41,557 bases of DNA, taken from Acidobacteriota bacterium (GTDB lineage Bacteria; Acidobacteriota; Terriglobia; 20CM-2-55-15). The stretch covers positions 1-41,557 of the forward strand of contig JAJEEE010000075.1 in assembly GCA_022821145.1 (NCBI GenBank), in the 5' to 3' direction. Below the pieces are notes generated by a model, which did not search any database, had not been told where the DNA came from, and saw only the letters and a program-made list of their open reading frames with translations. The translations under genes and the position numbers were made by a program. Of the stretch, positions 22,358-24,064 are shown one piece after another (position 1 is the stretch's first letter; each line of letters starts with the position of its first letter).

Positions 22358-22490
22358 TTGCGTGTCCGTTGCCTCCGGTTCCGCAGGAAAAAGCGCCGCG
22401 CCCATTGACACGGCCCGGCCGGCTGCCATCTATTCTAGTTGAGTGGGCCGCCTGTTATCTTGAACTGACGCCTCGTATCTGGACTCCTCC

Positions 22491-22835
22491 GTCAAGGAGG
22501 CGAACCATTCCCTCAACCTATCAGAAGGTTTCTTCATGCTCCATCTCACCGGAGGCGCGCACGTCGCGGTGACGGGCCGGCTGGTACAGACTGCACTCGT
22601 ATCTTCGGCCTCGCGTGTGGGAGTCGGATGGCTCCCGGGCCATGATGATCTATCCGCGCGCGGGGAACCAAACGCTCGCGACGGCCTGTGATGGCCAGAG
22701 GCGTCATCGGCATCGCCCCGCGCCGGTCTGACCGGTTCGTCATCAGATCGAACCGTATGCGCAGCCAGCGGTGGAAACCTGTGAAGTGGACGCTAGGCGC
22801 TCTCCTTCATGCGTTCTGAGTATCGGATGCTCGGC
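22491..22835 (-). ncRNA. Structured 3' non-coding region of the IS element, candidate bridge RNA
   Basis: No convincing protein frame lies between the transposase stop and the downstream subterminal repeat. The minus strand has several short perfect stems: CGGTTCG/CGAACCG (22749-22755 with 22733-22739, 9-base loop), CCGGT-CAG-ACCGG, and GGCC-ATCACA-GGCC. IS110-family recombinases are guided by an element-encoded bridge RNA, and IS1111-type members carry it downstream of the transposase. The location fits, but loop sequences matching target and donor were not identified. Confidence 0.4.
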
Positions 22836-23885
22836 CTATGCCGTTTCGGGGGGCGCGGTCAAAGGCGGGCGGACCCGATACGCGTCGTTGCGCTTCCAGA
22901 CGGCCCAGGCGATGCGGGCGAGTCTGTTGGCGATCGCCACGGCCGCCTTGTTCGAGCCGCGGCGGTCCTGGACCTGGCGCCCCCAGTCATAGAGTCGATC
23001 GTCGCCGCGCCGGGTCGCGGCCAGCCGCAGTACGGCGCGGGCGCCATGGATGAGCAGGGTCCGCAGGTAGGTGTCCCCCTTCTTGGAGATCCGGCCCAGG
23101 TAGCGCCGCAGACCGCTGGAGTACTCCCGCGGGGTCAGGCCCAGATAGGAGGCGAAGTGCCGGCTCGAGGCGAATCGTTCGACGTCGCCCACGAAGGCCA
23201 CCAGCGCCGAGGCCGTCAACACACCCACGCCTGGAATCGAGAGCAGCCGTTCCATCACGGGGTTCTGTTGGACCAGGGCCTCGATTTGCCGTTCGACCTT
23301 CCGGATCCGGGCTTCCAGGTCACCGATCTCGTCGCACAGGTCGCTGAACACCTCCCGCGTCATCATGGGAATCTGCGTGTCGGCGTCCTGGATCAGCTCG
23401 CGGACTTCTGGAACCACGCGCTGGGCTCCCTGGGGGATGACGTAGCCCAGCTCCCGGAGCAACCCCCGCACGGCGTTGATCCGCGCGATCCGTGTGCGCA
23501 TCCAGCCGGCCCGCACCCGGTGCAGCGTCGTCATCTGTTGCTGCTCCGGCGTCTTCACCGGCACCGGGCGGATCGCCGCGTTGCGGTCGGCTTCCAGCAA
23601 CCCCTTCACGTCGCTCCGGTCCGTCTTGTTCCGTCCCACGTAGGGCCGCACCTGCAGCGGCGGCAGCAATCGCACCTCGTGTCCCTGCCTCTCCAGTTGC
23701 CGCGCCCAGTAGTGCGCCGACCCGCACGCCTCCATCACGACCCGCGCCGGCTCTTGCCGGGCCAGAAACGGCAGGAACTGACTCCGGCTCAGCCGGCGAG
23801 ACTTCTCAACGTGTCCCGGCCGCTGAGAAATCCCCACTTCAAACACGCTCTTGGCCAAATCGATCGCAATTGTCGTATTCTTCAT
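22836..23885 (-). CDS. IS110-family transposase (DEDD recombinase)
   Basis: A 349-residue recombinase. The N-terminal RuvC-like DEDD domain has D9 in IAIDLAKSVFEVG, E52 in VVMEACGSAHYW, and D89/D92 in RNKTDRSDVKGLLEAD. The C-terminal Tnp_20 domain has LLSIPGVGVLTASALVAFVGDVERFASSRHFASYLGLTPREYSSG, including the serine-bearing segment. Both halves are complete, so the enzyme is probably active. AAGGAGGGG precedes the ATG at 23885 by about 6 bases; a start at 23918 would lie across that site and is rejected. The ribosome site can pair with the upstream end repeat (see the leader stem entry). Confidence 0.95.
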   Translation of the reverse strand: MKNTTIAIDLAKSVFEVGISQRPGHVEKSRRLSRSQFLPFLARQEPARVVMEACGSAHYWARQLERQGHEVRLLPPLQVRPYVGRNKTDRSDVKGLLEADRNAAIRPVPVKTPEQQQMTTLHRVRAGWMRTRIARINAVRGLLRELGYVIPQGAQRVVPEVRELIQDADTQIPMMTREVFSDLCDEIGDLEARIRKVERQIEALVQQNPVMERLLSIPGVGVLTASALVAFVGDVERFASSRHFASYLGLTPREYSSGLRRYLGRISKKGDTYLRTLLIHGARAVLRLAATRRGDDRLYDWGRQVQDRRGSNKAAVAIANRLARIAWAVWKRNDAYRVRPPLTAPPETA

Positions 23886-23888
23886 CTC

Positions 23889-23972
23889 GGACCCCTCCTT
23901 GGGATTTCGATCGAACACTCGATCCCGTTGACTTTGGCACTACGATGCCGACCAAGTCACCAGGAGGGGTCC
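23889..23972 (-). promoter_or_regulatory. Leader stem able to mask the transposase ribosome-binding site
   Basis: On the minus strand GGACCCCTCCT (23972-23962) is the exact complement of AGGAGGGGTCC (23899-23889), which contains the transposase Shine-Dalgarno sequence. The 11-bp stem would close a 62-base loop and hide the ribosome site in transcripts reading in from outside. The distal arm is also the subterminal repeat of the element. Confidence 0.6.
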
Positions 23973-24064
23973 ATCTCATCACTGCGCGCGTTGTCCACCC
24001 GCGGCGAGGAGCGCCCCGGGTACCATGGGACAACCGCAGTCTGCAGCGTGGTATACGCATCGAT

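What the first reader, a model, noticed from the sequence alone, without database searches (positions are those of the whole stretch)
22491..22835. Candidate bridge RNA downstream of the IS110-family transposase
The 3' non-coding region has at least three short perfect stems and no supported gene, and occupies the place where IS1111-type elements carry their guide RNA. Loops matching the flanks at about 22470 and 23980 would reveal target and donor recognition, and this sequence could represent a new specificity.
Basis: inference. Interest (0 to 1): 0.5.

Follow-up and report, generated by a model that had tools for sequence, protein, structure and literature searches.

The report
Guide RNA of an IS1111-type transposon
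The stretch holds what looks like the guide RNA with which a small jumping gene recognises both its own ends and its landing site, a palindromic repeat scattered through the same genome; this kind of RNA-guided transposon is already known, and this is a new, well-supported member with its own target.

Summary
The finding holds up. Window 22476-23981 is one IS1111-group insertion sequence: DEDD transposase on the minus strand, subterminal inverted repeats, and a 345-nt 3' non-coding region (22491-22835). Within it lies a 159-nt bridge RNA/seekRNA at 22587-22745 (-). A covariance model built from 34 homologues without the window finds it at 103.9 bits (E 7e-29). Across 35 RNAs (window plus 34) the helices covary: 172 double-change cells, 58 in shuffles, 0 of 500 as high. 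All four guide segments match their own element's ends and flanks better than those of others (0 of 20,000 permutations each). In the window the right target guide pairs 9 nt and the two donor guides match 6 nt each; the left target guide is weak (core plus 2-3 nt). The target is a dispersed REP-like repeat with empty copies in the genome. A decayed relative in the same genome keeps the donor guides but has changed target loops that fit the other arm of that repeat. Plain stem stability of the region is no better than chance. New member of a known kind; nothing is shown experimentally.

The parts
22476..23981 (-). whole insertion sequence, 1506 bp (transposase on minus strand)
   Evidence: both ends fixed by empty copies of the target repeat: left flank ...GCGSAG and right flank CGAGGCGTCAG... 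join in empty sites; terminal extensions read as 8 nt and 4 nt outside the inverted repeats
22836..23885 (-). DEDD transposase, 349 aa
   Evidence: Pfam PF02371 and PF01548; alignment with ISPa25 and ISKpn4 keeps D9, E52, D89, D92 and GLTPREYSSG (which residues are catalytic is recalled)
22587..22745 (-). bridge RNA / seekRNA, 159 nt
   Evidence: leave-one-out covariance model 103.9 bits, E 7.2e-29, at 22587-22746; covariation in 35 RNAs; exact ends chosen by eye
22697..22708 (-). right target guide loop; 22698-22706 pairs with GAGGCGTCA of the right flank (22466-22474)
22669..22681 (-). left target guide loop; GAG plus core CG at 22673-22677
   Evidence: weak match (core plus 2 nt in this copy's flank, 3 nt in GCGGAG targets)
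22642..22653 (-). right donor guide loop; 22643-22648 pairs with TGATGA of the left end (23976-23981)
22595..22606 (-). left donor guide loop; GATACG 22598-22603 equals the right end plus core
22480..22490 (-). right subterminal inverted repeat (GGAGGAGTCCA)
   Evidence: sequence
23963..23973 (-). left subterminal inverted repeat (TGGACCCCTCC), 10 of 11 complementary to the right one
   Evidence: sequence
23888..23899 (-). ribosome-binding-site arm (AGGAGGGGTCCG) that pairs with the left inverted repeat (23962-23973)
   Evidence: folding and comparison of 38 left ends
22465..22475 (-). right half of target: core CG plus AGGCGTCAG
   Evidence: matches empty repeat copies
23982..24020 (-). left half of the target repeat
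   Evidence: matches dispersed repeat copies

Best explanation
The 3' non-coding region of this IS1111-group element encodes a bridge RNA (seekRNA). The RNA has two internal loops. In the target loop the 5' side (right target guide) pairs with the top strand right of the insertion point and the 3' side (left target guide) is equal to the top strand left of it, around a CG core. In the donor loop one side pairs with the element's left end and the other equals its right end. With the DEDD transposase it joins the circularised element to a dispersed REP-like repeat, between GCGSAG and CGAGGCGTCAG. Shown here by computation: the RNA structure, the guide matches (the left target guide only weakly), the ends, the empty targets. 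Inferred from published relatives: transcription, binding to the transposase, the circle intermediate and strand exchange.
For: Leave-one-out covariance model: 103.9 bits, E 7.2e-29, next window hit 10 bits; in the whole genome only this place and a relic score well, third hit 15.3 bits, E 0.175. Covariation on 35 RNAs: 89.6% of 798 cells paired, 69.6 in shuffles; 172 double-change cells, 58.4 in shuffles; score 0.530 against 0.162; slid controls 0.067-0.114. Cognate guide matches against all non-cognate pairings: right target 6.65 vs 3.35 nt (n 31), left target 5.31 vs 3.34 (n 32), left end 5.31 vs 4.20 (n 32), right end 5.65 vs 3.37 (n 31); 0 of 20,000 permutations in each. Core dinucleotide in the left guide equals that in the right flank in 23 of 31. 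Guide order as published for IS1111. Empty targets: 20 exact copies of AGNGAGGCGTCAGNNCAAG, reversed control 0. Relic on C39: its predicted target AGTCGCGGCGTTC occurs 19 times, control 0. Against two repeat variants the window and relic loops score 14 of 14; the best of the 34 other elements scores 11, and random loops reach 13 once in 20,000 in each of two controls.
Against: No transcript or protein data. In the fixed register the window's left target guide matches its own flank only at core plus 2 nt (3 nt in GCGGAG copies); 14 of 28 elements with both ends have 5 or more, 10 of 28 have 2 or fewer, the window among them. In the same call the right guide match that starts directly at the core is 0-1 nt in 7 of 31 elements. 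The cognate match is the best or tied best in 22 of 31, 18 of 32, 10 of 32 and 27 of 31 for the four guides, so single elements are not always decisive. The plain fold of the region is not more stable than shuffles. RNA ends, loop columns and flank strings were chosen by eye; related elements are not independent. 15 of the 50 loci whose downstream region I read were not used.
Confidence: 0.94

Rival explanations
1. The RNA is real, but the target is recognised through the hairpin shape of the repeat by the protein, and the loop match is secondary.
For: The targets of this element and of its attC-like relatives look palindromic (my reading); the left target guide match is weak here.
Against: Right target guides match their own flanks across 31 elements (0 of 20,000 permutations); in the C39 relic both target strands differ and fit another site of the same repeat.
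Confidence: 0.04
2. The conserved RNA is a 3' regulatory element or terminator of the transposase mRNA, not a guide.
For: It lies directly 3' of the gene and is structured in homologues.
Against: A regulator would not need loops whose letters follow the flanking host DNA of each insertion; the matches fall in the four internal-loop strands.
Confidence: 0.01
3. The guide RNA is real in origin but this copy is decayed or inactive.
For: Only one complete copy in the assembly, one relic on C39, weak left target guide.
Against: Open reading frame intact with the residues conserved in relatives; CM score within the range of related elements; four contigs end in 98-99% identical ends of the element, so at least two further copies probably exist.
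Confidence: 0.1

Closest known systems
ISPa25 (IS1111 family; Pseudomonas aeruginosa plasmid NZ_CP137509.1)
   Same: closest named transposase in the plasmid list (49.6% identity over the full length); same RNA architecture, core CG, left inverted repeat complementary to the ribosome-binding site over 9 nt
   Different: per PMC11187229 it targets the attC site and its flanks here read GACCTTGAG ... CTTGTTAGCC; ours are a dispersed chromosomal repeat
ISKpn4 seekRNA (Siddiquee et al. 2024, PMC11187229)
   Same: experimentally shown seekRNA in the 3' NCR, same order of guides; an ISKpn4 copy is among the 34 RNAs of the model that finds ours
   Different: targets attC; 47.7% transposase identity
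ISPa11 (Siddiquee et al. 2024; P. aeruginosa REP target)
   Same: IS1111 element with seekRNA and a REP target, as described in the paper
   Different: I did not fetch ISPa11 or compare its REP with the repeat here
IS621 bridge RNA (Durrant et al. 2024, PMC11208160)
   Same: bispecific RNA with a target loop and a donor loop, core dinucleotide in the pairings
   Different: IS110 group: RNA in the left end and only short inverted repeats (passages seen)

Membership tests
IS1111 group of the IS110 family | DEDD transposase related over its full length to IS1111-group transposases | tested here: met
IS1111 group of the IS110 family | GL-P----S(t)G motif in the C-terminal domain | tested here: met
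   GLTPREYSSG in the window protein
IS1111 group of the IS110 family | subterminal inverted repeats, usually 11-13 bp, perfect or near perfect, with asymmetric extensions of 7 and 3 bp | tested here: met
   10 of 11 bp; extensions read as 8 and 4 from empty sites, one base more on each side than the published rule
IS1111 group of the IS110 family | long non-coding region downstream of the gene | tested here: met
   345 nt, 22491-22835
bridge RNA / seekRNA | conserved structured RNA in that region | tested here: met
bridge RNA / seekRNA | segment matching the top strand of the target, 5' in the RNA for IS1111 | tested here: met
   9 nt
[quoted passage not shown]
   right place and same core, but only core plus 2-3 nt in this element; clear in the set as a whole
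bridge RNA / seekRNA | donor loop matching both element ends | tested here: met
   6 nt each
bridge RNA / seekRNA | RNA is transcribed and co-purifies with the transposase | not testable with these tools
   no RNA or protein data
bridge RNA / seekRNA | required for transposition to the target | not testable with these tools
   needs an assay
integron attC-targeting group of IS1111 | insertion in attC sites | tested here: inconclusive
   the flanks are a dispersed repeat; that it is not attC is read by eye, no attC search was run

The most novel reading that the evidence does not exclude
Within one genome a single IS1111 lineage has changed its target loops while keeping its donor guides, so that two elements address the two arms of the same dispersed REP-like repeat. 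In addition the left inverted repeat doubles as an anti-ribosome-binding-site arm: transcripts entering from the host fold and block translation, whereas transcripts from the promoter formed in the excised circle start about 7 nt inside that repeat and free most of the site, so transposase would be made mainly from the circle.
Probability: 0.35. Interest if true: 0.55.

Novelty: new member of a known kind. Interest (0 to 1): 0.36.

Why it matters
It adds a bridge RNA with a predicted target and without a match in Rfam 15, in a genome where occupied and empty targets can be read side by side. The pair of relatives in one genome is a natural experiment on how target loops change while the donor guides stay fixed, which bears on how modular these RNAs are.

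Tried and rejected
Plain minimum-energy folding of the region: no signal. Rfam: nothing at gathering score except a tRNA elsewhere; at E up to 10, three chance-level matches on the other strand inside the transposase gene. Close relatives in viral contigs: none among 26 stretches. In genome contigs 6 relatives of 29 stretches, 38-51% identity in the best segment. At first I took the right end to be near 22515, because the C70 locus looked like an empty site; the repeat family showed that C70 holds a remnant of the right end (36 bp) and that the true end is 22476. Integron attC was considered as the target and set aside by eye. A RAYT link for the REP-like repeat was tried: one Y1_Tnp match in the genome, but neither GGACAACG nor GAGGCGTCAG in the 3.3 kb held around it, only one 8-mer GGCGTTCC at its edge. 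The four ORFs over the stretch have no Pfam match. Dropped rows: of 50 loci whose downstream sequence I read (22 with the window, 12, 16), 35 gave an RNA and 15 were left out: L024, L032, L037, L038 (contig ends), L033, L035 (incomplete), L036, L039, L050 (not recognised by eye), and L052-L055, L057, L058 (other type). The model later found an RNA in L039 (87.9 bits) and a weak one in L033 (48.5 bits). Of the 35, 31 had a usable right flank and 32 a left flank. The ribosome-site test used 38 left ends. Literature: searches. Of PMC11187229 I saw the outline with abstract, five named sections and passages; of PMC11208160 passages; all other papers only as listings. None of those listings showed a paper on the ribosome-site pairing, which is no proof that none exists.

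Full report
What is there. The stretch 22491-22835 lies between the stop codon of an IS110/IS1111 transposase (22836-23885, minus strand) and an 11-bp inverted repeat at 22480-22490. Its partner at 23963-23973 matches in 10 of 11 positions. The element stands between a fumarylacetoacetate hydrolase-like gene and an ABC transporter gene.

Exact ends. A search of the own genome with the element gave 47 matches: the window itself, two pieces of a relic on C39, four contig ends at 98-99% identity, one piece on C70, and 39 short hits to the left flank only (query 1532-1581). The flank is a dispersed repeat: a search with one copy gave 107 matching pieces, and sorted copies read about GGCGTTCCTCGCCGCGG-TGGACAACGAGCGSAG-CGAGGCGTCAGTCCAAG. 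Occupied left flanks end in GCGSAG (3 of 3 seen: window, C78, C31) and occupied right flanks start with CGAGGCGTCAG (3 of 3: window, C82, C10), and empty copies join the two. The element is thus 22476-23981, with extensions of 8 and 4 nt outside the inverted repeats. The published rule is 7 and 3 (passage seen); with 7 and 3 the joined flanks would give a site that I did not see among the copies printed. All three left junctions carry TG where the empty sites mostly have CG, which I read as the element's own base (inference).

Homologues. The transposase was searched in 396 genomes of the phylum (141 with a match), in genome contigs (6 loci) and in plasmids (at least 5000 records, capped; closest named ISPa25 at 49.6%). 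I read the downstream region of 50 loci, the window among them, and cut an RNA from 35. Several relatives (for example L030, L031, L038) sit in flanks that look like integron attC sites; that label is mine, from recalled attC sequences, not from a call.

Structure. The 35 RNAs align over 193 columns with an RNAalifold structure in which 14 of 19 pairs have double changes. With a first hairpin added by hand, 89.6% of 798 cells are paired, 172 cells have changes on both sides (58.4 in shuffles, 0 of 500 as high), and the covariation score is 0.530 (0.162 in shuffles; 0.067-0.114 when slid). The number of pairs with a double change is less telling (16 against 13.1, 13 of 500 shuffles as high). 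The hand-added hairpin is the weakest helix (69.2% paired). The outer stem of the target loop has double changes in 7 of 7 pairs. A model built on the 34 others finds the window RNA with 103.9 bits, E 7.2e-29, and nothing else in the window above 10 bits. In 297 genomes of the phylum 20 have a match at E 0.001 or better, the own genome and several that supplied the model among them.

Guides. The four loop strands were compared with each element's own flanks and ends and with those of all others. Mean longest match, cognate against non-cognate: right target 6.65 and 3.35 nt (31 elements); left target 5.31 and 3.34 (32); left end 5.31 and 4.20 (32); right end 5.65 and 3.37 (31); no permutation of 20,000 reached the observed mean in any. 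The cognate partner is best or tied best in 22, 18, 10 and 27 of these. Related elements are not independent, so these are not strict probabilities. In the window: right target guide GAGGCGTCA 9 nt, right donor guide TGATGA 6 nt, left donor guide GATACG 6 nt. The left target guide carries the same core CG and then 2 nt (own flank) or 3 nt (GCGGAG copies); 14 of 28 elements have 5 or more and 10 of 28 have 2 or fewer. The core in the left guide equals that in the right flank in 23 of 31. In 7 of 31 the right guide does not match directly from the core on (0-1 nt), the longer match starting further out in some.

A retargeted relative. The genome model search gave one further strong hit, a decayed copy on contig C39 (103.4 bits). 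Its RNA differs from the window's in 21 of 159 positions: 9 of 25 in the two target strands and 12 of 134 elsewhere (Fisher p 0.001). The left donor strand has 0 of 12 changed and the right donor strand 1 of 12, outside the paired letters; five of the other changes lie near the tip of the donor hairpin. Read in the register of the window, its loops predict AGT-CG-CGGCGTTC. That string is the other arm of the same repeat family: 19 exact copies in the genome, 0 for the reversed control. Scored against two repeat variants, window and relic reach 14 of 14; the 34 other elements reach at most 11; random loops reach 13 once in 20,000 in each of two controls. The right side of the relic runs into CGCCGCGACTGGACAACG, the part of the repeat just right of the predicted site, so it may have been inserted there; its own ends are lost, so this is inference. 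I noticed the fit after looking at the repeat and chose the two variants then, which weakens it as a test; some changes may be plain decay.

Left end. The left inverted repeat also pairs with the ribosome-binding site of the transposase (12 bp with one terminal G-U in the window). Over 38 left ends the cognate match is 6.05 against 4.73 nt, 0 of 20,000 permutations. It is 7-12 nt in 12 of 38 (window, ISPa25, ISKpn4, ISPa21, L030, L031, L034, L037-L040, L117) and 6 or less in 26, some near relatives (L032, L033, L035) among them. The window has C-G where relatives such as L037-L039 have T-A in this hairpin, while its right inverted repeat keeps T. Folding predicts the site to be closed in transcripts from outside and still closed when 6 nt of the repeat are missing, and mostly open when 7 or more are missing (the last two G stay paired), so the prediction hangs on one base. 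The joined ends form a promoter-like pair, TTGACG-17-TGAGAT in the window (8 of 12, shuffle p 0.06, weak alone); over 28 elements the mean is 8.57 against 6.20, 19 of 28 at p below 0.05. With a start assumed 7 nt after the -10 box, it falls 7 nt into the repeat for the window and four relatives, 2 nt for 20 of 28. A promoter at the circle junction is published for ISEc11. That the hairpin limits translation to circle transcripts is my inference.

Verdict. It is a new member of a known kind. RNA-guided target choice, REP or attC targets and natural change of target are published for this family. What is added is this element, its target with empty sites, a same-genome pair aimed at two arms of one repeat, and the left-end idea.

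Noticed in passing
G000:C39:63194-63352 (L064, L127): Decayed relative with near-identical donor guides but changed target loops that fit the other arm of the same repeat family.
   Followed up: yes
window 23888-23899 and 23962-23973: Left inverted repeat pairs with the transposase ribosome-binding site; 7-12 nt in 12 of 38 left ends, with a compensatory C-G for T-A change in the window.
   Followed up: partly
L063:491-526 (G000:C70:8790-8825): A repeat copy holds only a 36-bp remnant of the element's right end.
   Followed up: partly
G000 C37, C58, C74; also C30, C31: The target repeat occurs in clusters about 130-260 bp apart, alternating in orientation on C37, C58 and C74 (like BIME/REP clusters), mostly in one orientation on C30 and mixed on C31; a single Y1_Tnp gene exists (C51:200172-200498) without a recognised repeat beside it.
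   Followed up: partly
G000 contigs C10, C31, C78, C82: Contigs end inside copies of this element (141-169 bases), so at least two more copies are probably unresolved.
   Followed up: partly
L042 downstream of the transposase: The 3' half of the bridge RNA and the right end appear twice in tandem.
   Followed up: no
L123: An IS5708-family element is followed directly by the left end of a second IS110-family element (annotated IS4321 family).
   Followed up: no
G000:C14:9763-9996 (L023): Fragment of a more distant IS110/IS1111 transposase (40% over 78 aa, one stop).
   Followed up: no
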